The notes under the pieces are model-generated. The model was not told where the DNA came from. It saw only the letters and a list, made by a program, of their open reading frames with translations, and searched no databases. Shown piece by piece: positions 15,341-27,407 of a DNA stretch of 64,000 nucleotides (within the stretch, counting starts at the first letter, position 1; every line of letters begins with the position of its first letter). Both the position numbers and the translations under genes were made by a program. This stretch comes from Conexibacter woesei Iso977N (GTDB lineage Bacteria; Actinomycetota; Thermoleophilia; Solirubrobacterales; Solirubrobacteraceae). The DNA lies in the NCBI RefSeq assembly GCF_000424625.1, contig NZ_AUKG01000002.1, forward strand, positions 496,001-560,000, read 5' to 3'.

Positions 15341-15344
<4 letters not shown>

Positions 15345-16567
15345 CGCTCGCCGAGACGCTGCGGATCGCGCTCGGCGGGATCGTGGCCAACAAGCTGCGC
15401 TCGGGGCTGACGATCCTCGGCATGACGATCGGCGTCGCGTCGGTGATCGTGCTGGTCGCGGTCGGCAACGGCTCCAAGCAGCAGGTCCAGGCGAGCGTCC
15501 GGGCGCTGGGCAGCAACGTGCTGCTCGTGCAGTCCCAGGGCGCGCGCGGCGGCCCCGGGCTCTTCGGCGGCGGCGGTGCGACGGTCTCGCTGACCCAGGC
15601 GGACGCCACCGCGCTGCAGGACCCGTTCAACGCGCCGGACGTCAAGAGCGCCTCGCCGGTCGTCACGGCGTCGTCCACGACGCTGGTCGCGGGGTCGCTG
15701 TCGTACTCGTCGTCGGTGACCGGGACGACGCCGTCCTACACCGCCGCGCGCAACTACGACATCGCCAGCGGTGAGATGTTCACAACGGCCGACGTCAAGA
15801 AGCACAACCGCGTCGTCGTGCTCGGCCCGACGGTCGTGGAGAACCTGTTCAACGGCGTCAACCCGGTCGGGCAGACGGTCAAGATGGGCGGCTCGTCGTT
15901 CACGGTCGTCGGCGTGACCAAGGCCAAGGGGTCGAACGGCACGACCGACCAGGACGACGTCGTGTTCGCGCCGCTGACCGCGGTCCAGGACGGGCTGTCG
16001 GGCTACGGCTCGATCAACCAGATCGTCGTGCAGGCCAAGAACGAGAGGTCGCTCAACGCCGCGCAGGCCGAGGTGACGTCGATCCTCGACACGCGCCACG
16101 ACATCGACGCGTCCGACACCTCGACGTCGTCGTTCCAGGTCATCAACCAGGGCTCGATCCTGGAGACGTCGAACGAGACGACCTCGGTGTTCACGACGCT
16201 GCTCGGCGCGGTGGCCGCGATCTCGCTGCTCGTCGGCGGCATCGGTGTGATGAACATCATGTTGGTGTCGGTCACCGAGCGGACGCGCGAGATCGGCATC
16301 CGCAAGGCGATCGGCGCGCGGCGGGCCGACATCCTCTGGCAGTTCCTGGCCGAAGCGGTCCTGGTGTCGATGCTCGGCGGGATCACGGGCGTCGTCGTCG
16401 GGCTGGTCGGCTCGAAGTTCCAGATCGCCGGCGTCCAGCCCGTCATCGCCCTCTACTCGATCCCCCTGTCCTTCGGCGCGGCCGTCCTGGCCGGGCTCTT
16501 CTTCGGCACCTACCCGGCGGGCCGCGCAGCGCGCCTGCGTCCCATCGACGCCCTCAGATTCGAATGA
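15341..16567 (+). CDS. MacB-type ABC transporter permease
   Basis: This 408-residue permease has an N-terminal helix (about 20-42), a MacB-PCD-like periplasmic domain (about 45-280, e.g. GTTPSYTAARNYDIASGE) and an FtsX domain with three C-terminal helices. It contains the family hallmark GGIGVMNIMLVSVTERTREI (about 300-319), then GIRKAIGARR. It is coupled by 4-bp overlaps to the ATPase upstream and a small membrane protein downstream. In this family the substrate varies (antibiotics, peptides, lipoproteins), so none is assigned. Confidence 0.93.
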
Positions 16568-17323: not shown

Positions 17324-18952
17324 ATGTGGGCAGTGCCGAACATCGCCGTCACCGGTCACCGCAACCCGGACACCGACTCGATCGCCGCCGCGATCGGGTA
17401 CGCCGAGCTGCGGGGCCGCCAGGATCCCGACAACACGTACATCCCGGTCCGGCTGGGGGACGTCAACAGCCAGACCCGCTGGGTGCTGGAGCAGGCGGCC
17501 GCCGCCGAGCCGATGTTCCTGCCGCACATCATGTTGCGCGTCCGCGACGTGATGGCGCAGGACTTCTACGCGGCGGGCGTCGACGACCCGATCCGCGAGG
17601 TCGGCCTGACGATGGCGGCCGAGAAGCTCGACGTGGTCCCGATCGTGGACCACGACGGCAGGCTGGTCGGCGTGATGACCGAGCGCGCGCTGGCACGGCG
17701 GTACATCCGCGAGACGCGTGAGGCGTCGTCGCTGGTCGACACGCCGACGCGGGTGAGCGCCATCGCCGCCGCGGTGTCCGGGTCCCAGGTCGTCGGTGAC
17801 GACATCACGGTCGCCGGGCGCGTGTGGGTGTTCGCGATGGCGACCGACTTCCCGGAGTCCGGGATCGGCGCGGGCGACGTCGTGGTGCTCGGCAACCGCG
17901 AGGACGCGCAGCTGAAGATGATCGAGCGCGAGGTCGCGCTGCTCGTGGTGTCCAACGGGCTGGCGCCGAGCGACGACGTGCTGCGCGCGGCGCGCGAGGC
18001 GGGGACGGCCGTGGTCGTCTCGGAGCTCGACTCCTACGTCTGCGGCCGTCTCACGACGCTGGCGGCGCCGTGCAGCGCGCTGATGGACACCGATCCGGTG
18101 ACGGTCCGGGGCAACGACCTCCTGGAAGACGTCACGGACATGATCAAGGACGTGTCCTACCGCGCGGCGGTGGCCGTCGACCGTTCCGGGCACCCGATCG
18201 GGCTCGTGACGCGCACCGACCTGGTGAACCCGACGCCGCGCGACGTGCTCCTGGTCGACCACGCCGAGCAGGGCCAGAGCGTGCCGGGGATCGAGCAGGC
18301 GCACATCGTCGAGATCCTCGACCACCATCACATCGGCTCGATCGAGACGCGCGTGCCGGTGAGGGCGACGTTCGACCCGGTCGGCTCGACCTCGACGCTG
18401 GTGATCGAGCGCTTCCTGCAGGCGGGGGAGGAGCCGACGAGGCCGACCGCGACCGTCCTGCTGGGCGCGATCCTCAGCGACACCGTGATCCTGAACTCGC
18501 CCACGACGACCGACCGCGACCACGCGGCGGTCCGGTGGCTGGAGAGGTTCCTCGACCTGGACGCCGCCGAGTGGGGGCGAGAGATGTTCGAGAGCGGCAG
18601 CGATGCCGCCGACGCTTCCGCCGAGTCGCTGCTGGGGCGTGACTCCAAGGAGTACGAGACCTCCGAGGGACCGATGTGCATCGCCCAGGTCGAGACCGCC
18701 GGGAAGGTCCTGGTCGACCGGCTCGGCGAGCTGCGCGAAGCGCTGCAGGCCCAGCACGACAAGAACGGCCACGTGCTGAGCGCGCTGATGGTCACCGACA
18801 TCCTGGAGAAGCACACGCAGCTCCTGATCGCCGGCGACATCGCGACCGCCGAGCGCGCGTTCGGGACGTCCGCGGAGGACGGGATCCTCGACCTGCCGGG
18901 CGTGATGTCGCGCAAGAAGCAGGTCGCACCGCCCCTGCTGGGCGCGTTCTAG
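17324..18952 (+). CDS. Family II (DHH) manganese-dependent inorganic pyrophosphatase with CBS domains
   Basis: This protein of about 542 residues matches the long CBS-containing family II pyrophosphatases that split pyrophosphate to phosphate. The catalytic DHH part begins GHRNPDTDSI (metal ligands His12, Asp16, Asp18), and later LLVDHAE and ILDHHHIG supply further ligands. The DHHA2 domain ends with SRKKQVAPPL, the phosphate-binding signature. Between them lie two CBS domains (about 70-125 and 245-300) and a DRTGG-like region, which in known relatives bind adenine nucleotides and regulate activity. The start may be ATG 17324 or GTG 17333. It lies 43 bp after the export operon and is probably separate from it. 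Confidence 0.93.
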   Translation: MWAVPNIAVTGHRNPDTDSIAAAIGYAELRGRQDPDNTYIPVRLGDVNSQTRWVLEQAAAAEPMFLPHIMLRVRDVMAQDFYAAGVDDPIREVGLTMAAEKLDVVPIVDHDGRLVGVMTERALARRYIRETREASSLVDTPTRVSAIAAAVSGSQVVGDDITVAGRVWVFAMATDFPESGIGAGDVVVLGNREDAQLKMIEREVALLVVSNGLAPSDDVLRAAREAGTAVVVSELDSYVCGRLTTLAAPCSALMDTDPVTVRGNDLLEDVTDMIKDVSYRAAVAVDRSGHPIGLVTRTDLVNPTPRDVLLVDHAEQGQSVPGIEQAHIVEILDHHHIGSIETRVPVRATFDPVGSTSTLVIERFLQAGEEPTRPTATVLLGAILSDTVILNSPTTTDRDHAAVRWLERFLDLDAAEWGREMFESGSDAADASAESLLGRDSKEYETSEGPMCIAQVETAGKVLVDRLGELREALQAQHDKNGHVLSALMVTDILEKHTQLLIAGDIATAERAFGTSAEDGILDLPGVMSRKKQVAPPLLGAF

Positions 18953-19056: not shown

Positions 19057-19503
19057 CTAGGCGGCCCGCCTGGTGGAGGCGGCCGCGATCTCGCGGACCT
19101 CGGGGCCGACGCGGGCGAGGATCGCGCGCAGGTCCGCGCGCGCCGGCTCGTCGAGGGACACCGGGACGGGATAGCCGCCGTCGGGCGCAGGCACGGTCAG
19201 CGCCCCACAGATGCTCAGGAGGTTCCCTACCGGGTCGACGAGCGGCGCGTCGTCGCGGACGAGCGCGTAGAGATGCTCGACGGCGCCGCGGACGCGGCCC
19301 TCATCCGCCAGCTCGATCACGCCGGCCGCCGCCAGCGTCCGGACGTGGTACGCCACCGATCCCAGCGTCCCGCCGGTGATCCGGCTGATCTGCGTCGGGC
19401 TGATCGGCTTGCCGTAGCTGCGCATCACATCGACGACCTGATCGCGCACCGGGTGCGGTCTCAGCGTCGCCAACCGCTTCTGCTTCTCTCGCTTCGTGGC
19501 CAT
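19057..19503 (-). CDS. ArsR-like helix-turn-helix transcriptional regulator
   Basis: This 148-residue DNA-binding protein has a winged helix near the N-terminus: HPVRDQVVDVMRSYGKPISP, then TQISRITGGTLGSVAYHVRT, then LAAAGVIELADEGRVRGAVE. This is the ArsR/HTH_20 type that recognises an operator as a dimer. No Cys metal site is present, so it is unlikely to be a metal sensor. The C-terminal half is of unknown function. The start is ATG 19503. Repeats in the 98 bp before its start (19511-19576) may be its own operator. Confidence 0.82.
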   Translation of the reverse strand: MATKREKQKRLATLRPHPVRDQVVDVMRSYGKPISPTQISRITGGTLGSVAYHVRTLAAAGVIELADEGRVRGAVEHLYALVRDDAPLVDPVGNLLSICGALTVPAPDGGYPVPVSLDEPARADLRAILARVGPEVREIAAASTRRAA

Positions 19504-19601: not shown

Positions 19602-20669
19602 CTACGCGCCATGCTGACGCACGCCGGCACGCCATGCGGCCAGCACCGGGACCAGCAGGCGGGTGAGGGAGCCACCGGCGCGGACGAGCCGCCGGACCTC
19701 CTGCGGGTCGTGGGCGCGCGCGCCGTCGGTGGTCAGGTACATGGCGAACATCGAGCAGATGATCACGAGGTGGCGGTCGGCGTCCGGCAGCTGGGCGGCG
19801 CGCCGCAGCGTGAGCGCCATCAGCTCGCCGAGCCGCGCCACGGCCTCCGTGCGCGCGCCGTAGTAGTTGAGGTAGTTGTGATGACCGCCGGCGCGGTCCT
19901 CGTCCTCGTCGATGTAGTTGTCCAACAACGAGCTGAGCGTCGCGACCATGGTGTAGGCCTCGACCGTGGCGACGAGGTCGCCGCGCGTGGCGCCCGGCCG
20001 CGCCGAGGCGGCCAGCAGCGCGATCACCGTCAGCATCGAGCTGGCCCCGGCGCTCGACTCGAACCACCTGAGGTCGGGGTCGCGGGCCAGCTCGGCGACC
20101 GCGTGCGCGTGCAGCAACGCCGGCCGGTCCTGCGGGCGCGTCGTGTTCTCGAGGTCGAGCGAGCGCGCCCGCCGCACCTCCAGGACGACGAGGTCGAGCG
20201 CCTCCGCGTAGCGCGGCAGCCCGGCCCAGCCGGCGTGGCAGGTCGCCACCAGCGCGCGCAGGAGCTCGGCGTCGGCGTAGCTGCGCGGTGCGCGGCCGAG
20301 GTCGACGACCTCCGGGAAGCTCGTCATGTCCGGACCGCTGCACGGCAGGCCCGCGCCGACGCGCTCGCCGGTCTGGTCATGGTGGTTGGCGAGGATCTGG
20401 AACGCGACGAGCGCGCGCAGGAGCCGGGCGTCGCGCACGTCGCCGAGCGTCCAGAACAGCGCCGCGCCGTCGAGCAGCGGGCGCTTGGCCTCCAGCGTCG
20501 CGCGCATCTCGGCGCGCGCCGCCGGATCCGGGAGCGCGTCGGCGCGCGCCACCCACGTACGGTGCTCCGCACGCACCAGCCGCAACCCCTCCGTCAACTC
20601 CCAGGCCGCCGCGCGACCGAGCGCGCGGAGGCGTCCGGCGGTCACCGCCGCCGGGTCCATCGCCTGCAT
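19602..20669 (-). CDS. DUF2600 / tetraprenyl-beta-curcumene synthase-like protein
   Basis: This 355-residue, largely helical protein resembles the DUF2600 (YtpB) family, which includes large-terpene (C35) synthases. Family-like stretches are LTEGLRLVRAEHRTWVARAD, the ALFWTL segment, ALVAFQILANHHDQTGER, RWFESSAGASSMLTVIALLA and an acidic motif SLLDNYIDEDEDRAGGHHNY (about 247-266). The latter is in the place of the Asp-rich metal/diphosphate site. ATG 20669 has AGGAGG eight bases upstream. The gene is last in a minus-strand run with an FtsX permease, two ABC ATPases and a PadR regulator. Terpenoid formation is an inference from family resemblance; the acidic motif differs from textbook DDxxD. 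Confidence 0.75.
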   Translation of the reverse strand: MQAMDPAAVTAGRLRALGRAAAWELTEGLRLVRAEHRTWVARADALPDPAARAEMRATLEAKRPLLDGAALFWTLGDVRDARLLRALVAFQILANHHDQTGERVGAGLPCSGPDMTSFPEVVDLGRAPRSYADAELLRALVATCHAGWAGLPRYAEALDLVVLEVRRARSLDLENTTRPQDRPALLHAHAVAELARDPDLRWFESSAGASSMLTVIALLAASARPGATRGDLVATVEAYTMVATLSSLLDNYIDEDEDRAGGHHNYLNYYGARTEAVARLGELMALTLRRAAQLPDADRHLVIICSMFAMYLTTDGARAHDPQEVRRLVRAGGSLTRLLVPVLAAWRAGVRQHGA

Positions 20670-20704
20670 CACCACGACCTCCTGAAGCGTCCGACAGCCT
20701 CCGG

Positions 20705-23281
20705 CTACTCGCGCGCCGAAGGCAGAGACCGGGCCACGAGGTAGCCCGGGAGCACCACGGCGAGCGTCGATGCCGCGAGCACGGTGCCCACGGCGATCCC
20801 CGCGACGTCGAAGCGCAGCCCATGCACGACCGGGAACCCGGTCACCGCGGCCACGCCCTGCGTGCAGAGCACCTGGCCGAGCAGCCCGAAGAGGGCGCCG
20901 AAGAGCACGCCGACGCCGAACAGCGTCGCGCTCTCGATCAGCAGCGCGCGCCACACGAGGCCGGTGGTCAGCCCGAGGAACTTCTGGCCGCCGACGATCG
21001 GCCGGTGCTGCCAGAGCATGCCGATCATCGCGGCGCTCATCGCCAGCACGGCGGCCAGGAGCGTCAGCGTCGCGATCTCGCTGAGGCGCGCGAGGCCCTT
21101 CTCGGCGACCTCGCTCTGGCGCGCCGAGCGCTGCGCCGCGGTCTCGACGAGCAGGCCCGAGCGCTTGCCGAGCGCGGCGGCGACCGAGCCCCGGACCTCG
21201 TCCGGCGAGTGGCCCGGCGCGGCCTGCACCTGGTAGGCCGCGACGGTCGCGGGGCCGGGCCAGGCGCGCCGGAAGTCGCCGGCGCCGATGACGATCGCGC
21301 CGGAGGACCAGCCGAGGTTCGTCGTGAGCGCCGCGACGCGCAGCGCCACCGGATGGGGGCTGGGCAGCGTGAAGCGGTCGCCGATCCCGACGCCGAGGCG
21401 GTCCGCGAGACCCTTGGAGACGAACGCCCAGCCACCGCTTGCGACCTGGGCGTTCGCGCGTGCGGCGTTGCCGTCCAGCACCTGGGTGCTCGTCACCTGC
21501 GGCGGCGCGCCGGCCGCGGCGCCGACCAGCCAGGCGCGCTCGTCGGCGACGTCGAGCAGCGCCGCCGGCTGCTGCGCGACGCCCGCGACGCCGGGCGCCG
21601 TCTCGATCCGCCGCAGGTCGCGCGGCGCGAACGACGTCGTGCCGATCGAGCTGCCGGCACCCGCCGCGGTGACCCACACGTCGGCGGGGGCGTTGAGCTG
21701 CTGGGAGAGCTGGTCGAGACCGCCCTGCAGGTTCGCGCGCGCGCCCTGGAGCGACATCGCGCCGAAGACGGCGATCGCCCCGGTCGTCGCGATCGCCAGC
21801 GCGCGTGGCCGCCAGCGCTTGGCGCCGAGCTGGTGCAGCGCCAGCTCCAGCGCCGCCGAGGAGTGCGAGCTGCGGCGGTTGAGCCGGCGCAGCCCGTCGA
21901 TCGCGAAGCCGAGGGCGAGCGGCAGCAGCCCCGCGACCGCGCCGGCGAGCAGCACGAGCCCGACGACGACGGCGCTCGGCGCGACGACGGTGATGACGAT
22001 CGCGGCGACCAGCGCGGCGAGGCCCAGCGCCCAGGTCGGGATCGGGCGCCGCGTGCCGCGCGTCCCGGTCGGTGCGCGCGTCGTGCGCCGCGGCGCGACG
22101 GCCTCGGCGACCAGCCCGCGGACCGGTCCGAGCACGCCGACGATCGCGGCGAGGATCCCGCCCACGACGGCGATCGTGATGCTCTGCCACGACACGATCC
22201 GGACGTCGCCCATCGCGAACGCGCCCGACAGGAAGCCGACGTCGGACCTGAACCCGTGGCGCGAGACCAGCTCGCCCACCGTCAGCCCCGCGGCCACGCC
22301 GAGCACGCCGATCGTCGTCGCCTCGACCATCAGCGTCGTGACGGTCGCCGACGGCGGGAAGCCCTGGCGGCGCTGCTGCGTGACGAGCTTGCCGCGGTCC
22401 GACGCCGTGACGAGCAGCGCGCAGATCGCGAACAGCCAGCCGACCAGCGCGCTGAGCGCGCTGAACACCGCGGAGGCCTCGGTCGTCGGCTTGGTCGCGT
22501 GGTCGAACAGCTCGGTCTCGTAGGAGGACGCGCGCACGTCGGCGCCGCCGACGTGGAGCGCGCTCAGCTCCCTCCGTACCTGGCCGATCTTGCCCGGCTC
22601 GGCCTCCACGAGGATCCGCGACACGTTGTGGCCGACGCCCGCGAGCCGCTGCAGGTAGTGCAGCGGCACGAGGACGACCGACGTCTTGACCAGCTCGCCG
22701 AGCTGGCGCTCGCCCGCGACCGCCGAGGGCACGACCAGCCGGCGCCCGTCGACCTCCAGGCTCGCGTCGTCGCCGAACAGCAGGCCGATCCTCTGGGCGA
22801 CGAGCGCCGGGACGATCACGGTCTCCTGCCTCGCCGCGTCGCCGCTGCTGAAGCCGCGCAGGAGCGAGCCACGGAGCCTGACGATCCGCGGATCGGCGCC
22901 GTTGAACGTCACGTCGGCCTGGCCCTGCTGGCCGATGAGGTTGCCGGGGACCTGGAGGATCGGCGCCGCGCGCTTGACGCCCGGCAGCGCGACGACCTTG
23001 TTGTAGGTGTCCTCCGGGATCGTGGTCCCGCCGCGCGCGAGCACCTGCAGCTGGCCGGCGCCGACGATGCCCGCGTTGAGGCGCTTGACCGGTCCGGACA
23101 GGGAGGTCGAGGCGACCTGCGTGGCGTACAACAACGCGACGCCGGCCGCGATGCCGAGGACCGCGAGCAGGTCCTGGATCCAGCGACGGCGGCGCAGGCG
23201 ACGGCGGTAGAGGGCGAGCGCGGCGGAGACGCGCAGCCGGCCCGGGGGGACCGGCTCGAAGCCCCAGGAGCTCAGACCCAC
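20705..23281 (-). CDS. Large FtsX-family ABC transporter permease
   Basis: This 858-residue membrane protein has the two-FtsX-domain layout of large lipoprotein/lipid exporters. It has an N-terminal helix (about 38-58), a long extracytoplasmic domain, a group of four helices (about 280-460), a second extracytoplasmic domain (about 490-735), and three closing helices (about 745-850). The start is GTG 23281 and overlaps the end of the ATPase gene by 10 bp. The DUF2600 gene follows after 35 bp. It is presumably driven by one or both adjacent ATPases. The exported or extracted substrate is unknown. Confidence 0.88.
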   Translation of the reverse strand: MGLSSWGFEPVPPGRLRVSAALALYRRRLRRRRWIQDLLAVLGIAAGVALLYATQVASTSLSGPVKRLNAGIVGAGQLQVLARGGTTIPEDTYNKVVALPGVKRAAPILQVPGNLIGQQGQADVTFNGADPRIVRLRGSLLRGFSSGDAARQETVIVPALVAQRIGLLFGDDASLEVDGRRLVVPSAVAGERQLGELVKTSVVLVPLHYLQRLAGVGHNVSRILVEAEPGKIGQVRRELSALHVGGADVRASSYETELFDHATKPTTEASAVFSALSALVGWLFAICALLVTASDRGKLVTQQRRQGFPPSATVTTLMVEATTIGVLGVAAGLTVGELVSRHGFRSDVGFLSGAFAMGDVRIVSWQSITIAVVGGILAAIVGVLGPVRGLVAEAVAPRRTTRAPTGTRGTRRPIPTWALGLAALVAAIVITVVAPSAVVVGLVLLAGAVAGLLPLALGFAIDGLRRLNRRSSHSSAALELALHQLGAKRWRPRALAIATTGAIAVFGAMSLQGARANLQGGLDQLSQQLNAPADVWVTAAGAGSSIGTTSFAPRDLRRIETAPGVAGVAQQPAALLDVADERAWLVGAAAGAPPQVTSTQVLDGNAARANAQVASGGWAFVSKGLADRLGVGIGDRFTLPSPHPVALRVAALTTNLGWSSGAIVIGAGDFRRAWPGPATVAAYQVQAAPGHSPDEVRGSVAAALGKRSGLLVETAAQRSARQSEVAEKGLARLSEIATLTLLAAVLAMSAAMIGMLWQHRPIVGGQKFLGLTTGLVWRALLIESATLFGVGVLFGALFGLLGQVLCTQGVAAVTGFPVVHGLRFDVAGIAVGTVLAASTLAVVLPGYLVARSLPSARE

Positions 23282-23985
23282 GGATGGTCCCCGCTGAGCG
23301 ACTCGACGTCGTGCAGGTGGCCGTCCTCCAAGGCGTACACCTTGTCCGCGAAGGCCGCGGCGCGCTCGTCGTGGGTCACCAGCAGCGTGGCCATCCCGCG
23401 CTCGTGGGTCTGCGCGCGCAGCAACGAGAGGACCTCGTGGCTGAGCTTGCTGTTGAGGCTGCCGGTCGGCTCGTCGGCCAGCAGCACCTTGGGGTCCAGC
23501 GACAGCGCCTGTGCGATCGTCACGCGCTGGCGCTCGCCGGCCGACAGCGTGTCGGCGCGGTGGTTGAGGCGGTGGCCGAGGCCCAGCTCGTGCAGCAGCG
23601 GGGTGACCTTCCGGAAGCCTTCACGCACCGACTTGGTGGCGACGAGGTGCTTGATCGCGGCGTTCTCCAGGACCGTGGCGCCCTCGTCCAGGCCCGCCTC
23701 CTGGTGGACCCAGCCGAGCGTGTACATGCGGTACCTGGCCGCGTCCTTGGCCGACAGCCGGGTCACGTCGACGCCCGCGACGAGCACCTCGCCGGAGTCG
23801 AGCGGCTCGATCCCGGCGGCGATGCGCAGCAGCGTGCTCTTCCCGGAGCCGGACGGGCCGTAGAGCGCGACCAGCTCGCCGGCCGCGATCATCAGCGACA
23901 GCCCGTCGACGGCGCGCACGGGCTCCCCGCCGCTGGCGTAGTGCTTCCGCACCTCGCGGAACTCGAGCAACGGTGTGTCTGCCAT
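23272..23985 (-). CDS. ABC transporter ATP-binding protein (LolD-like)
   Basis: This 237-residue ATPase has all catalytic elements: Walker A GPSGSGKST (43-51), Gln95, signature LSAGERQR (147-154), DEP with Asp171-Glu172, and His205. The signature reads LSAGE instead of LSGGQ, which is tolerated in the family. It overlaps the permease gene by 10 bp and is therefore the obvious motor for it. It is followed upstream by a second, degenerate ATPase gene seven bases away. Confidence 0.92.
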   Translation of the reverse strand: MADTPLLEFREVRKHYASGGEPVRAVDGLSLMIAAGELVALYGPSGSGKSTLLRIAAGIEPLDSGEVLVAGVDVTRLSAKDAARYRMYTLGWVHQEAGLDEGATVLENAAIKHLVATKSVREGFRKVTPLLHELGLGHRLNHRADTLSAGERQRVTIAQALSLDPKVLLADEPTGSLNSKLSHEVLSLLRAQTHERGMATLLVTHDERAAAFADKVYALEDGHLHDVESLSGDHPWV

Positions 23986-23992
23986 CGCGCGC

Positions 23993-24697
23993 TCAGCCGT
24001 CCGCGCGCAGCGGGATGACGGTGCCGCCCGGGCGGACCGAGGGTCCGTCGAGCCTGCCGTCGCGCAGCGACCAGATCCGGTCCAGGCCCCTCAGTTCGAC
24101 CAGCTCGGCGGCCGTGACGAGGACGGCGACGCCGGTCCCGGCGATCGACGACAGCAGCTGCATGACCTCGTCGCGCTCGACCGCGCCGAGCCCGGCCAGC
24201 GGGTCGTCGGCGATCAGGACGCGCGGGCCGCGGACGATCGCCTGGGCGAGCGAGGCGAGCATCCGCTCACCGTCGCTGAGCACGTCCCAGGGCTCGCCGC
24301 CGATCTCGTGGGCGCCGGTGCGCTCCAGCGCGCGGCGGGCGAGCGTCAGCGCTTCCTTGTACGAGTGGCTGAGCAGCAGCGACGACGCGATCCAGTCCTC
24401 GACCGGCATCTCGTCCAGCTCGGGCCCGCGCCGGTTGGCGAGGCCGACCTGCGCGTGCAGGATGCCGCCGCGGGCGGAGTTGAGCGGCTGGCCGTCGAGG
24501 AGCACGTTCCCGCGGTCCGGGGTCAGGATGCCCGCGGCGACAGCGGTCAGCGTCGACTTGCCCGCGCCGCGCCTGCCCCAGACGCCGGCGATCTCGCCGG
24601 GCATGAGCGCGAGGTCGACGTCGTGGAGCACCATCGTGGAGCGGCGGCCGCGGAGGTAGCAGAGGCTGACGTTCTCGAGGGTCAGCACGGCGGGCAT
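23993..24697 (-). CDS. Degenerate ABC ATP-binding protein
   Basis: This 234-residue ABC ATPase keeps Walker A GRRGAGKST (41-49) and a signature LSDGE (140-144) but departs at catalytic positions. Walker B ends in Asp164-Asp165, so Asp replaces the catalytic Glu. The H-loop His is replaced (VLVTAAEL, Ala196). No Q-loop Gln is seen near residue 88. It likely binds ATP but hydrolyses it poorly, and may form an asymmetric dimer with the intact ATPase encoded next to it. It starts at ATG 24697, three bases after the PadR gene stop. Confidence 0.85.
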   Translation of the reverse strand: MPAVLTLENVSLCYLRGRRSTMVLHDVDLALMPGEIAGVWGRRGAGKSTLTAVAAGILTPDRGNVLLDGQPLNSARGGILHAQVGLANRRGPELDEMPVEDWIASSLLLSHSYKEALTLARRALERTGAHEIGGEPWDVLSDGERMLASLAQAIVRGPRVLIADDPLAGLGAVERDEVMQLLSSIAGTGVAVLVTAAELVELRGLDRIWSLRDGRLDGPSVRPGGTVIPLRADG

Positions 24698-24700
24698 GTG

Positions 24701-25270
24701 TCAGGCGTCCCTGCTCAACGCGTGGAGCTCCTCGAGCTCGGCGCGCAGGTCGCCGAGCACGGTCGCCTGCGCGGCGACGTCGGCGGCCTGGTACTTCGCG
24801 ACGAGCGTGCGGAGGACCGTCCTCCACGGCGCGTCGCGGCGCGCCATCGCCAGCGGCTCGGGCGTGACGCTCCACTCCTGGAAGCGCGTGACGCTGAGCT
24901 GCTCCAGGTCGGCGGCGAAGGCGATCAGGATCGGCAGGTCGGCCGGGCGCGCGACGCTCACGCGCACGCAGAGGTCGTCGAAGCTGCGCGGGGGCGTGCG
25001 CGCGTGGCGGTCCAGCTCGGCGAGGCCCGCCGTGGTGGCCGCGAAGATCGTCCGGTCGGGATGGCGCGACGCGGGGGAGTCGGCAGCCGGCGCGTGCGGC
25101 GCGATCAGCCCGTCGGCGTTGAGGCGCTCCAGGTGGCGGTACACCGTCGAGCGGCCCGGGCGCAGCTGGTCCGGGACCGGCCAGCGCTCGATCTCGGAGT
25201 ACAGGGCGTATCCGTGCGCGGGCTCGCGGGCCACGAGGCCCAGGACGGCGTGTCGTGTCGATTCTGCCAA
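24701..25270 (-). CDS. PadR-family transcriptional regulator
   Basis: This 189-residue regulator has the PadR winged helix at the N-terminus (RHAVLGLVAREPAHGYALYS, then EIERW, GRSTVYRHLERLNADGLI) and a helical C-terminal Vir-like dimerisation region. The TTG start at 25270 has GAGGA five bases upstream, which supports the choice. It is the first gene of the run ending with DUF2600, and PadR proteins commonly repress adjacent ABC exporter genes. The divergent AT-rich region before it is the likely operator. The inducer is unknown. Confidence 0.87.
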   Translation of the reverse strand: MAESTRHAVLGLVAREPAHGYALYSEIERWPVPDQLRPGRSTVYRHLERLNADGLIAPHAPAADSPASRHPDRTIFAATTAGLAELDRHARTPPRSFDDLCVRVSVARPADLPILIAFAADLEQLSVTRFQEWSVTPEPLAMARRDAPWRTVLRTLVAKYQAADVAAQATVLGDLRAELEELHALSRDA

Positions 25271-25365
25271 GGGGATCCTCGTTCGGAAACGCGAATATAT
25301 CTGGCGCGGTCAAGCGATATCCAGTGCTGTGTTCAAATTGCGATCCAGCTGGTACGTTCGTGTTT
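25271..25365. promoter_or_regulatory. AT-rich divergent promoter region
   Basis: This 95-bp gap between the PadR operon and a secreted-protein gene is the most AT-rich short stretch nearby (CGAATATATC, GCGATATCC, GTTCAAATTG). ATATC (25297-25301) and GATAT (25316-25320) form an inverted pair around a 14-base spacer, and PadR operators are commonly AT-containing inverted repeats. Both promoters and the PadR site are expected here. Exact elements are not assigned. Confidence 0.45.
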
Positions 25366-25803
25366 GTGATTGCTGCAGCTCGCTCTACCTTCTTGCTCGT
25401 GATCGCCCTGCTCGTAGGGGGATCGACCGCGTTGGCCGCTCAACCGGTCAAAGAGCACGTCGATCTCAAAGTCGTAAGCAGGACCGCGGGCGGGACCAGG
25501 TTCGTCCACAACGGCACGGCGACGGGCACGTTCGCCGGCTCGGTGAGGTCGAGGATCACGCTCGCGCACTCGGTCGTGATGACGGGCGTCGTGACGATCA
25601 GGGCCAGGGGCGGGACGGTCACGATGAAGGTCAACGGCCGCGCGCGGTCGCTGTCGATGCGCACCAAGTTCAACGGCACCGCGACGATCACGGGCGGCAC
25701 CGGGAAGTACGCACACGCCAAGGGTTCGGGCCAGTTCACGGGCGTCGTGAACCGCAGCACGTGGCACGCGACGATCGACGCAACGGGCTCGTTCACGTCT
25801 TGA
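25366..25803 (+). CDS. Small secreted beta-rich protein
   Basis: This protein of about 145 residues has a signal peptide (IAAARSTFLLVIALLVGG, cleavage near ALAA-QP). A mature domain of beta strands contains GTATGTFAGS and ITGGTGKYAHAKGSGQFTG; the GGTGKYA-A-G pattern resembles allene-oxide-cyclase-like barrel proteins of bacteria. GTG at 25366 or 25360 are the only credible starts and neither has a clear ribosome-binding site. Its stop overlaps the TTG start of the next gene. It is divergent from the PadR-ABC operon. Function unknown. Confidence 0.6.
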   Translation: MIAAARSTFLLVIALLVGGSTALAAQPVKEHVDLKVVSRTAGGTRFVHNGTATGTFAGSVRSRITLAHSVVMTGVVTIRARGGTVTMKVNGRARSLSMRTKFNGTATITGGTGKYAHAKGSGQFTGVVNRSTWHATIDATGSFTS

Positions 25804-26576
25804 GGCGCGGCCTGCCCGCGCTCGCCGCCGCGCTCGCGCTGGCGGCGCCGGGCGGCGCGGCGGCGGCCCAGAAGGCGCTGACGTTCCACGCCGCGTTCGG
25901 CCCGGGCGCGCGCCTGGGCGCGTCAACGGCGATCGTCTTCAGCGGTGACATCGCGGACCGCAGGATTCCCGTGATCGAGTTGCGGCTGCTCACGCCGGCC
26001 GGAGTCGACCTCGCCTCCAGCGGGCTCGGCGTCGCGTCCTGCACGCGCCCGAGGAGCGACATCCTCTCCGTGGTGGTCCCGGCGGCCGACGACAGCAGGC
26101 CCTGCCCGGTGAACTCGCTGATGGGCCTCGGCTCCGCGGTCGCCTCGCTGGACATGGAGCCGAGGATCGACGGCACGGCGACGCTCGACGTCTACGCGGG
26201 CGGCTCGGTGGAGGACAAGCCGGGACTCGTGATCGTGGCCAACACCTACAACCCGGTTCGCTTCCACCTCTTCTACCAGGGTTACCTGTACATCCCGCCG
26301 CCCGGCTACGGCGTCGGCGTCGCGATCCTGCTCCCGCAGGCACCGCAGCCGCCCTTCGGAGCGGCGCTGATGCTGTCGCACGTGCGCGCCGCGATCGGCG
26401 GGTCGGGCATCACCTACACCAAGACCAGGCACGGCCACCGCGAGACGTACCACCCGCGCGGGGTCACGCTCCCGGAGCAGTGCCCCCGAAGCGGGTTCCG
26501 CTTCCGCCTCATCGCCCGCTTCGCCGACGGTGCCCGGCGGCAGGCGGATGCCGTGGTCGCCTGCCCGAAGCGCTAA
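25800..26576 (+). CDS. Secreted protein of unknown function
   Basis: This 258-residue protein starts with TTG 25800, overlapping the previous stop (TTGA). The N-terminus RRGLPALAAALALAAPGGAA is a signal peptide. The mature part is beta-rich (LRLLTPAGVDLASSGLGVAS, VVVPAADDSRPCPVNS) with three or four Cys, and includes VANTYNPVRFHLFYQGYLYI. The arrangement recalls secreted proteins of Solirubrobacterales without a named domain. It is coupled to the smaller secreted protein, so both probably act outside the cell. The gene abuts the convergent DUF2127 gene. Confidence 0.65.
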   Translation: MRRGLPALAAALALAAPGGAAAAQKALTFHAAFGPGARLGASTAIVFSGDIADRRIPVIELRLLTPAGVDLASSGLGVASCTRPRSDILSVVVPAADDSRPCPVNSLMGLGSAVASLDMEPRIDGTATLDVYAGGSVEDKPGLVIVANTYNPVRFHLFYQGYLYIPPPGYGVGVAILLPQAPQPPFGAALMLSHVRAAIGGSGITYTKTRHGHRETYHPRGVTLPEQCPRSGFRFRLIARFADGARRQADAVVACPKR

Positions 26577-27407
26577 CTAGGGCGTCGAGGCTTCGAGGGC
26601 CGGCCAGCCGACGTCTTGCTCTTTGAGGGCTTCGTCGGCGGCGGCGCCGCCGCGGAGGCCGAAGAGGCGTTTGGCGTAGAGGAGGTACACGACGACCGCC
26701 AGGTTGATGAGGAAGGCGAGGACCTTGAAGGGGGTCGCGTGCTCGCTCAGCTCGTAGACCTCGACGGGCAGCAGGGACGCCGTCACGATCAGCGTGAGGT
26801 ACTCGGCCCAGCGCTTGCCGTACCAGAGGCCGATGGCCTCGACGCCCTCGACCAGCGCGTAGACGGAGGCGATCGCCGCGAAGAGGTGGAGCCTCGACGA
26901 GCGCAGCGAGAAGAGCTCGTCGAGCCTGTGCGTGATGCCGTTCCGCGCGCCCGCCCCGCCGTTGGCCGACTCGCCCGTGATGTCCCCCGTCACGCGCAGC
27001 ACCGTGTCCCGGAGGTCGGCGCGGTTCGCGCTGAACAGCAGGATCGCGAGCGCCAGCAGCGCGAGCCCGATGAAGTGGGCGGCGCGGTTGACCGCGATCA
27101 GCCGCAGGACGATCTTGTCGCGCAGCGGCCGCCCCCGCAGCGGCAGCTCGATCTCGTCCCGCCCGGGCGGGACGTCGCGAGCGGGATCGGCAGGCAAAGC
27201 AAGGGGCAGCCAACTGTCACAGCGCAGGCACCGGTGCCAGCGCGTCCCGCCCTCGTCGCGCGCGATCACGGGATCGTCGACGCGGGCGGCGTCCAGCGCC
27301 ACCAGCTCGTGCCCGGCCAACCCGCACACCAGCAGCTCCCAGTGGAAGCGCGGCACGAACCGGCGTGGCTTCTGCGCCCGCACCCCGGGCACTGCTCGTT
27401 GGCTCAC
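26577..27407 (-). CDS. DUF2127 family membrane protein
   Basis: This 276-residue protein has a soluble N-terminal part with a possible metal site (HRCLRCDSW near 80) and a membrane domain with four helices (about 115-135, 170-190, 205-225, 233-250). The membrane part reads AAHFIGLALLALAILLFSAN, VYALVEGVEAIGLWYGKRWA and AFLINLAVVVYLLYAKRLF, a strong DUF2127 pattern. Function is unknown for the family. The start is GTG 27407, and its 5' end is divergent from rapZ, so the two share a 35-bp promoter gap. Confidence 0.8.
   Translation of the reverse strand: MSQRAVPGVRAQKPRRFVPRFHWELLVCGLAGHELVALDAARVDDPVIARDEGGTRWHRCLRCDSWLPLALPADPARDVPPGRDEIELPLRGRPLRDKIVLRLIAVNRAAHFIGLALLALAILLFSANRADLRDTVLRVTGDITGESANGGAGARNGITHRLDELFSLRSSRLHLFAAIASVYALVEGVEAIGLWYGKRWAEYLTLIVTASLLPVEVYELSEHATPFKVLAFLINLAVVVYLLYAKRLFGLRGGAAADEALKEQDVGWPALEASTP

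What the first reader, a model, noticed from the sequence alone, without database searches (positions are those of the whole stretch)
19602..25270. PadR - two ABC ATPases - giant FtsX permease - DUF2600 terpene-synthase-like operon
Five minus-strand genes are packed with gaps of 3, 7, -10 and 35 bp: a PadR regulator, a degenerate and an intact ABC ATPase, an 858-residue double-FtsX permease, and a DUF2600 (YtpB/tetraprenyl-beta-curcumene synthase-like) protein. DUF2600 proteins act on long prenyl diphosphates, and large FtsX permeases move lipids or lipoproteins. The combination suggests a regulated make-and-export route for a membrane terpenoid, or a membrane-stress module. I know of no described system with this gene set. 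The joint role is inference.
Basis: partly seen in the sequence, partly recalled or inferred. Interest (0 to 1): 0.65.

Follow-up and report, generated by a model that had tools for sequence, protein, structure and literature searches.

The report
Terpene-enzyme and lipid-transporter gene cassette
A soil actinobacterium carries a regulated gene set that pairs a terpene-synthase-like enzyme with a membrane transporter of a lipid-handling type, and relatives carry up to ten diverged versions of it, which suggests a so far undescribed way of making and moving terpene-like lipids.

Summary
The five-gene operon is real and at the stated coordinates. It is one copy of a conserved, multicopy cassette: of 60 DUF2600 genes in 16 genomes of the window's taxonomic family, 59 lie within 2.3 kb of a permease of the same clade, 49 of them adjacent on the same strand. 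DUF2600 and permease divergence correlate (Mantel r 0.74).

The DUF2600 model has the class IB terpene synthase fold (TM 0.8, Z 36). The permease model is closest to E. [quoted passage not shown] ABC1 is degenerate across the family, ABC2 intact.

The isoprenoid link goes beyond DUF2600. All 7 additional cis-prenyltransferases in 17 genomes lie by a cassette; in one genome without DUF2600 they stand in its place. In another taxonomic family, 2 of 4 such permeases are followed by trans-polyprenyl synthases. Two secreted proteins often accompany the cassette.

Best reading: a prenyl-lipid synthesis-and-extraction module. Activity, product and transport direction are untested, and the window's enzyme has an altered first metal motif (NxxD, not DxxD).

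The parts
24701..25270 (-). PadR-family transcriptional regulator (189 aa), first gene of the operon
   Evidence: Pfam PadR 2.4e-08; a PadR gene lies with the transporter genes in 46 of 59 permease-linked DUF2600 loci, some of the rest being cut at locus ends
23993..24697 (-). ABC ATPase 1, degenerate (Asp at Walker B Glu, no H-loop His)
   Evidence: Pfam ABC_tran 9.3e-21; H-loop His absent in 52 of 52 family members
23272..23985 (-). ABC ATPase 2, intact catalytic motifs
   Evidence: Pfam ABC_tran 6.5e-31; Walker A Lys, Walker B Glu and H-loop His in 56 of 56 family members
20705..23281 (-). YbbP-like type VII ABC permease (858 aa); about ten membrane helices and two extracytoplasmic domains read from the model
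   Evidence: Pfam MacB_PCD/FtsX; AF2 model pLDDT 79.5, pTM 0.74; top fold match E. coli YbbP 9ge6/9ge7
19602..20669 (-). DUF2600 protein with class IB terpene synthase fold (355 aa)
   Evidence: Pfam DUF2600 3.9e-45; PDB 5yo8 E=2.3e-16; AF2 model pLDDT 88.3, TM about 0.8 and Z about 36 to 6loo and 5yo8
25399..25803 (+). likely accessory: small secreted-looking protein A (N-terminal hydrophobic stretch, by eye), divergent from PadR; exact start uncertain
   Evidence: homologues at 13 loci including the window; closely packed and co-directional with DUF2600 in L099, L108 and L114; Pfam AOC_like only E=0.031, below its cut-off
25761..26576 (+). likely accessory: secreted-looking protein B (271 aa), no known family
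   Evidence: 14 of 27 homologues found in 17 genomes lie within 10 kb of a cassette, 0.53 expected; no match in Pfam (weak chance-level rows only) or PDB sequences
19057..19503 (-). possible accessory: HTH regulator 98 bp downstream of DUF2600
   Evidence: Pfam HTH_20 5.6e-06, 26.7 bits against cut-off 27; downstream of DUF2600 at both cassettes of this genome and at G030's cassette

Best explanation
The operon is one copy of a modular cassette for isoprenoid lipids. Proposed order: (1) housekeeping or cassette-borne prenyl transferases supply a polyprenyl diphosphate; (2) the cytoplasmic class-IB-fold DUF2600 enzyme ionises and cyclises or otherwise converts it into a hydrophobic terpenoid in the membrane; (3) the YbbP-like permease, driven by an unequal ATPase pair (degenerate ABC1 plus catalytic ABC2), extracts that lipid on the outer side of the membrane by the type VII mechanotransmission cycle, possibly handing it to the secreted proteins A/B; (4) PadR senses the lipid or a related ligand and controls the operon. 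Shown here: the conserved linkage, the predicted folds, the ATPase asymmetry and the repeated pairing of this permease clade with prenyl-diphosphate enzymes. Inferred: catalytic activity, product, direction of transport, the role of A/B, and PadR's ligand and targets.
For: 59 of 60 DUF2600 genes in 16 genomes lie within 2.3 kb of a clade permease; 49 adjacent on the same strand, median gap 42 bp. In the same sample of 101 family genomes, 16 have both DUF2600 and the permease (E<=1e-20), none has DUF2600 alone once the spurious G097 hit is dropped, G050 has the permease alone, and G071 has a marginal permease hit, 1.5e-14; G050 and G071 have no DUF2600 even at E 1 by profile. Of 8 family genomes without DUF2600 picked as controls, 0 have the permease at 1e-20. 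DUF2600 and permease distances correlate: r=0.74 over 45 complete cassettes, 0 of 2000 permutations as high, and 0.72 among 85 within-genome pairs. Class IB terpene synthase fold. D98, E102, E204, D254 and D258 kept in 59 of 59 full-length family members. Each of 17 genomes has one cis-prenyltransferase away from cassettes (presumed housekeeping); all 7 additional copies lie within 5.5 kb of a cassette, 6 of them within 206 bp; three of these are G050's, beside the permease. Following that lead into another taxonomic family, 2 of 4 clade permeases (both in G215) are followed at 21 and 55 bp by polyprenyl synthetases. In total 64 of 79 clade permease places have a prenyl-diphosphate enzyme within 2.5 kb. 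P450 genes directly follow DUF2600 at L042 and L045, both in genome G098. YbbP is the top fold match for the permease, and YbbAP-TesA is proposed to extract hydrophobic compounds for a lipid enzyme (PMC12646458; abstract, sections 7 and 16 and passages seen).
Against: Motif 1 of the window enzyme is NHHDQTGE against the published DYLDNLxD, so activity may be lost or altered. 15 of 79 clade permease places have no prenyl enzyme within 2.5 kb, including 2 of the 4 in the second taxonomic family. Trans-prenyl synthases are not enriched near cassettes in the 17 genomes (1 of 36 within 10 kb, expected 0.71). DUF2600 outside the taxonomic family lacks the transporter at the 4 loci examined, so the enzyme does not need it everywhere. 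BceAB is close behind YbbP in the permease fold comparison (Z 19.1 against 22.0, both with rmsd above 10). YbbAP's partner TesA is periplasmic while DUF2600 shows no signal peptide by eye, so docking as in YbbAP-TesA is unlikely. Type VII transporters typically do not move substrates across the membrane (PMC12646458), so 'export' needs a separate flip step. No operator was found by an inverted-repeat search. No expression or product data.
Confidence: 0.58

Rival explanations
1. Envelope-stress or antibiotic-resistance module: the transporter frees or shields prenyl-pyrophosphate intermediates of the cell-wall cycle (as BceAB appears to do), and the enzyme adjusts prenyl-diphosphate pools by consuming or supplying them.
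For: In B. subtilis the ytpB mutant's bacitracin sensitivity is due to heptaprenyl-PP accumulation (PMC8144471 passages); cis-prenyltransferases beside the permease would fit undecaprenyl-PP supply; BceAB ranks second by Z among the permease's fold matches; PadR regulators often control drug-responsive transporters (recalled).
Against: The permease model has two large extracytoplasmic domains like YbbP, whereas BceAB lacks the first (PMC12646458). Up to 10 diverged copies per genome and P450 neighbours at two loci look more like product diversification. [quoted passage not shown]
Confidence: 0.17
2. In the window's genus the DUF2600 protein has become a non-catalytic prenyl-lipid binder or sensor that gates the transporter or PadR, while most relatives stay enzymes.
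For: The first motif Asp is Asn in all three copies from the window's genus (window, L033, L034) and in L036, L087, L099 and L108; L095 has Glu.
Against: D98, E102, D250, D254, E257 and D258 are all present in the window protein, and the fold is predicted with high confidence; Asn for Asp in a metal motif need not abolish activity (recalled from other terpene synthases).
Confidence: 0.12
3. The permease acts on the enzyme's prenyl-diphosphate substrate or on a lipid intermediate (presenting or recycling it) rather than exporting the finished product.
For: Type VII transporters typically extract or present molecules rather than translocate them (PMC12646458); cassettes with only a cis-prenyltransferase in G050 imply that an uncyclised prenyl lipid can be the cargo.
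Against: The enzymes are expected in the cytoplasm, on the opposite side from the permease's extracytoplasmic domains; the secreted partners point outwards.
Confidence: 0.12
4. The genes only travel together as a mobile cassette and share no pathway.
For: Multiple diverged copies per genome; patchy presence, e.g. absent from same-genus G008 and G045.
Against: Correlated divergence, close spacing with linkage kept through changes of order and orientation, and replacement by other prenyl enzymes.
Confidence: 0.03

Closest known systems
Class IB (large) terpene synthases: BalTS (PDB 5YO8, 6LOO) and B. subtilis YtpB
   Same: Pfam DUF2600 (the Pfam profile also rings in B. subtilis); same fold over nearly the whole chain (TM about 0.8, Z about 36); acidic positions of the second motif kept
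   Different: Motif 1 is NxxDxxxE here (DxxDxxxE in most cassette relatives) instead of DxxDxxxD; 21-22% identity in the fold alignments; encoded with a transporter and PadR. B. subtilis ytpB is in a ytpAB operon with a lysophospholipase gene (PMC11708026, PMC8144471 passages)
E. coli YbbAP-TesA (type VII ABC transporter plus lipid hydrolase; PMC12646458)
   Same: Closest solved fold for the permease; duplicated permease with two extracytoplasmic domains and about ten helices; lipid enzyme encoded beside it
   Different: Two unlike ATPases, one degenerate, instead of two YbbA; the enzyme is prenyl-diphosphate-related and without signal peptide by eye, not a periplasmic hydrolase; PadR gene; many paralogues per genome
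BceAB(-S) peptide-antibiotic resistance transporters
   Same: Type VII fold with ten helices, second-best fold match (Z 19.1), prenyl-pyrophosphate connection
   Different: [quoted passage not shown] enzyme gene in the operon; PadR rather than a two-component sensor in the operon
LolCDE / MacAB
   Same: Related extracytoplasmic domains; lipid-modified cargo for LolCDE
   Different: Four helices per permease is typical there (PMC12646458); here one duplicated chain

Membership tests
DUF2600 (Pfam PF10776) | Whole-length profile match above the gathering score | tested here: met
   154.6 bits against cut-off 25, profile 3-328 of 328
Class IB terpene synthase | Alpha-helical class IB fold | tested here: met
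   AF2 model pLDDT 88.3 from 16 sequences; Foldseek TM 0.79-0.83 to 6loo/5yo8; VIA Z 36.2, 329 aligned, rmsd 2.4 (6loo), next other entry Z 18.7
Class IB terpene synthase | Motif DYLDNLxD (PMC7839719) | tested here: not met
   Window has NHHDQTGE at 95-102; in the cassette family the first position is Asp in 51 of 59, the fourth Asp in 59 of 59, the eighth Glu in 59 of 59
Class IB terpene synthase | Motif DY(F,L,W)IDxxED (PMC7839719) | tested here: inconclusive
   Window has DNYIDEDED at 250-258: the four acidic positions and Ile fit, the second and third letters do not
Class IB terpene synthase | Conversion of a polyprenyl diphosphate to a terpene | not testable with these tools
   Needs an enzyme assay
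Type VII ABC transporter, YbbP kind | Single duplicated permease with two large extracytoplasmic domains and about ten membrane helices | tested here: met
   Top matches YbbP 9ge6 (Foldseek E 7.6e-23, TM 0.58/0.61) and 9ge7 (Z 22.0, 702 aligned, rmsd 10.4); helix layout read from the model. Model confidence is moderate (pLDDT 79.5)
YbbAP-TesA | Two copies of one ATPase and a TesA hydrolase partner | tested here: not met
   Two different ATPases, one lacking the H-loop His in 52 of 52; the linked enzymes are DUF2600, cis- or trans-prenyl synthases
BceAB | No first extracytoplasmic domain | tested here: not met
   The model has two such domains, residues about 75-250 and 530-715
PadR regulator | PadR winged-helix domain above the gathering score | tested here: met
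   34.3 bits against cut-off 27

The most novel reading that the evidence does not exclude
A new kind of prenyl-lipid export module in Solirubrobacterales: one YbbP-like transporter chassis with an unequal ATPase pair, coupled to interchangeable prenyl-diphosphate enzymes (class IB cyclase, cis-prenyltransferase, trans-polyprenyl synthase) and secreted acceptor proteins, radiated into up to ten parallel cassettes per genome that place different terpenoid lipids on or outside the cell surface.
Probability: 0.42. Interest if true: 0.85.

Novelty: new variant of a known kind. Interest (0 to 1): 0.68.

Why it matters
How bacteria handle very hydrophobic terpenoids at the membrane is poorly understood, and the natural cargo of YbbP-type transporters is not settled (PMC12646458). 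This system offers a defined enzyme-transporter pair with many natural variants, so cargo, coupling and specificity can be tested directly. It also points to a set of class-IB-fold proteins (60 genes in 16 genomes) as candidates for new large terpenoids, with natural swaps to cis- and trans-prenyl synthases that act as controls for the cargo hypothesis.

Tried and rejected
Anti-phage defence: PADLOC gave only ATPase-domain similarities for the two ABC proteins and nothing for the other four proteins scanned; rejected. Chance neighbourhood: rejected. Inverted repeats that could be a PadR operator, in window 25235-25420 and L034 15100-15260: none found at these settings. A significant family for secreted proteins A and B: none; the resemblance of A to AOC_like (0.031, 1 of 13 members) and Dirigent (best 0.029, 2 of 13) is not significant and kept as a hint only. 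Enrichment of trans-prenyl synthases near cassettes in the 17 genomes: not found (1 of 36). Permeases without a prenyl enzyme within 2.5 kb: 15 of 79 (their loci include L135-L142, L146, L149, L150 and parts of L052 and L102), not explained. G212 and G215 were not searched by profile for cis-prenyltransferases genome-wide, and one search scored only three candidates per genome, so more permeases may exist there. The G097 DUF2600 hit (E 3.5e-4) did not align to the motifs (L019) and was dropped, so 17 of 101 became 16. G285, a fifth genome outside the family with a DUF2600 match, was not examined; L116-L118 have a short flank on one side.

Literature, all in the held open-access library: DUF2600 (1 paper, on EC-number/Pfam mapping); tetraprenyl-beta-curcumene synthase, large-terpene synthases or YtpB (21 papers); a broad class IB/genome-mining search that was too unspecific; class IB terpene (2); YbbA, YbbP, TesA (10); Conexibacter with terpene (18, 12 listed); terpene synthase with FtsX, ABC transporter and operon (0); sesquarterpene (44, 12 listed); Solirubrobacter with terpene synthase (5); YbbP with prenyltransferase and operon (0). 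By titles and abstract starts, none of the listed papers describes this gene set; subscription journals and preprints were not searched.

Limits: binomial p-values ignore relatedness of copies and use rounded genome sizes, so they are indicative only. The gene caller is a home-made codon-score caller; it missed lower-GC genes in L148, which were read. One search's output was cut; clusters with a member within two genes were relisted. Signal peptides and the absence of one were judged by eye.

Full report
Observation. Pfam supports each gene. Against PDB sequences the DUF2600 protein matches only the class IB terpene synthase 5yo8/6loo/6lop (E 2.3e-16).

The cassette is conserved. The window's own genome holds a second DUF2600 gene with the same neighbours. 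In a sample of 101 genomes of the same taxonomic family, 17 matched the window DUF2600; one (G097, E 3.5e-4) does not align to the motifs and was dropped. The remaining 16 genomes hold 60 genes, up to 10 per genome. Stretches around all of them were fetched (the window for its own copy). 59 of 60 lie within 2.3 kb of a permease of the window's clade; 51 are adjacent and 49 adjacent on the same strand, with a median gap of 42 bp. Among the 59, ABC2 was found in 56, ABC1 in 52 and PadR in 46, some misses being cut at locus ends. The exception is a fragment (G083:C80, L096). Order varies: the usual order is PadR-ABC1-ABC2-permease-DUF2600, but DUF2600 may be divergent or convergent, and L087, L099 and L108 have DUF2600-ABC2-permease without ABC1 or PadR. 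Distances between copies correlate for DUF2600 and permease (r 0.74 over 45 complete cassettes, 0 of 2000 permutations as high; 0.72 over 85 within-genome pairs); the nearest neighbour is the same in 19 of 45, about 1 expected.

Co-occurrence. In the same 101 genomes the permease clade (E<=1e-20) is in the 16 DUF2600 genomes and in G050; G071 has a marginal hit at 1.5e-14. G050 and G071 have no DUF2600 by profile at E 1. Of 8 further DUF2600-free family genomes picked as controls, none has the permease at 1e-20.

Distribution. DUF2600 was found in 15 of 299 genomes of the class and in 1 of 396 of the phylum sample, the window's own. The 14 named loci come from MAGs labelled Solirubrobacteraceae, Solirubrobacterales or Actinomycetota, from Conexibacter sp. 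CPCC 205762 (two loci) and from one MAG labelled Sorangium sp., probably misbinned; all 14 have the permease beside DUF2600, though most are the same contigs as loci already counted. Outside the window's taxonomic family, the 4 DUF2600 loci examined (L115-L118; a fifth genome was not examined) show no clade permease in the stretch fetched. The linkage is therefore lineage-specific.

The enzyme. The AF2 model (pLDDT 88.3, pTM 0.88) matches class IB terpene synthases 6loo and 5yo8 over nearly the full chain (TM about 0.8; Z 36.2 and 35.9 with 329 residues aligned, next entry 18.7). Published class IB motifs are DYLDNLxD and DY(F,L,W)IDxxED (PMC7839719, passages seen). In the cassette family D98, E102, E204, D254 and D258 are present in 59 of 59 full-length proteins; the first position of motif 1 is Asp in 51, Asn in 7 and Glu in 1; position 250 is Asp in 55 and Glu in 4. 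The window protein has N95, so it fails the strict first motif. I therefore call it a DUF2600 protein with class IB fold and do not claim a proven class IB terpene synthase.

The transporter. The permease model (pLDDT 79.5) is closest to E. coli YbbP (9ge6: Foldseek E 7.6e-23, TM 0.58/0.61; 9ge7: Z 22.0, rmsd 10.4, 702 aligned); BceAB follows at Z 19.1. [quoted passage not shown] abstract, sections 7 and 16 and passages seen). Unlike YbbAP, the ATPases here are two different proteins. ABC1 lacks the H-loop His in 52 of 52, has Asp or Ala at the catalytic Glu in 25 of 52 and Arg for the Walker A Lys in 16 of 52; ABC2 keeps all three in 56 of 56. This fits an unequal nucleotide-binding pair on a pseudosymmetric permease (inference).

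The isoprenoid link beyond DUF2600. In 17 genomes (the 16 plus G050) the PF01255 profile finds 24 cis-prenyltransferases: one away from any cassette in each genome (17, presumed housekeeping) and 7 more. All 7 lie within 5.5 kb of a cassette, 6 within 206 bp. G050 has five clade permease places (two on one small contig, one partial) and no DUF2600; three of them have a cis-prenyltransferase beside the permease. I then looked at the clade permeases of another family of the order, f4, expecting prenyl enzymes. 2 of 4 had them: in G215 one permease is followed 21 bp downstream by a polyprenyl synthetase and then by an FAD-dependent oxidoreductase-like protein with a C-terminal polyprenyl-synthetase-like stretch (26.8 bits, just under its cut-off of 27), and a second permease is followed at 55 bp by a 659-residue polyprenyl synthetase. 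The third G215 permease and the G212 one have no such partner. Overall 64 of 79 clade permease places, fragments included, have a prenyl-diphosphate enzyme within 2.5 kb: 56 DUF2600 alone, 3 DUF2600 plus cis-prenyltransferase, 3 cis-prenyltransferase alone, 2 trans-polyprenyl synthase; 15 have none. P450 genes directly follow DUF2600 at L042 and L045, both from G098. Against this, ordinary trans-prenyl synthases in the 17 genomes are not near cassettes (1 of 36 within 10 kb, 0.71 expected).

Secreted companions. Two secreted-looking proteins divergent from PadR in the window recur near cassettes (13 loci each within eight genes). For B, 14 of 27 copies found in the 17 genomes lie within 10 kb of a cassette against 0.53 expected; 13 do not. 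In L099, L108 and L114 the pair is co-directional and closely packed with DUF2600. Neither has a known family; A has a non-significant resemblance to the allene oxide cyclase/dirigent barrel.

Mechanism. The simplest account is a module in which a prenyl-diphosphate enzyme makes a hydrophobic isoprenoid and a YbbP-like transporter extracts it on the outer face, under PadR control. Activity, product, direction and the role of the secreted proteins are inference. The main rival is an envelope-stress or antibiotic-resistance role around prenyl pyrophosphates: the bacitracin sensitivity of B. subtilis ytpB mutants is due to heptaprenyl diphosphate accumulation (PMC8144471 passages), although BceAB activity was unaffected by that accumulation (PMC7038271 passages). 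In B. subtilis the YtpB product makes spore surfaces hydrophobic when exposed (PMC11708026 passages), a precedent for a surface role of such lipids.

Novelty. The parts are known families; the combination was not found in the searches of the held literature, which lacks most subscription journals and all preprints. I rate it a new variant of the 'type VII transporter plus lipid enzyme' kind, with an unusual paralogous radiation and swappable prenyl enzymes.

Noticed in passing
window 19057-19503 and L033 9338-9793: The HTH genes downstream of the two cassettes in this genome are 89% identical although the linked DUF2600 proteins are only 39% identical; recent gene conversion or duplication of the regulator alone is possible.
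   Followed up: partly
window 17324-18952 (+): A DHH/DHHA2 protein with CBS and DRTGG domains, the layout of regulated family II inorganic pyrophosphatases (recalled), lies near the operon's 3' end; a terpene synthase releases pyrophosphate, but the pairing is probably coincidence. It did not appear among the recurrent neighbour clusters.
   Followed up: partly
window 15341-16567 (+): A separate MacB/FtsX permease of 408 aa, followed by a glycine-rich protein.
   Followed up: no
window 26577-27407 (-): DUF2127 predicted membrane protein with an N-terminal extension.
   Followed up: no
L052, L094, L095, L097, L119: Extra ABC1-type ATPase genes, four of the five with a PadR gene, sit just beyond DUF2600 with no permease of their own beside them.
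   Followed up: no
L148 2475-4622 (-): A 715-aa FAD-dependent oxidoreductase-like protein (weak, sub-threshold geranylgeranyl reductase match) with a C-terminal polyprenyl-synthetase-like stretch, in an apparent operon with a clade permease and a polyprenyl synthetase.
   Followed up: partly
L123: A cassette on a contig from a MAG labelled Sorangium sp.; probably binning contamination from a Solirubrobacterales genome.
   Followed up: no
G067:C219:6549-9068 and G098:C7:9827-12388: Two permease matches each contain one in-frame stop, either sequencing errors or decaying copies; fragments also occur at G083:C38 (permease) and G083:C80 (DUF2600).
   Followed up: no
L087, L099, L108: The cassette architecture without ABC1 and PadR coincides with Asn at the first position of DUF2600 motif 1 in all three copies, as in the window's genus.
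   Followed up: no
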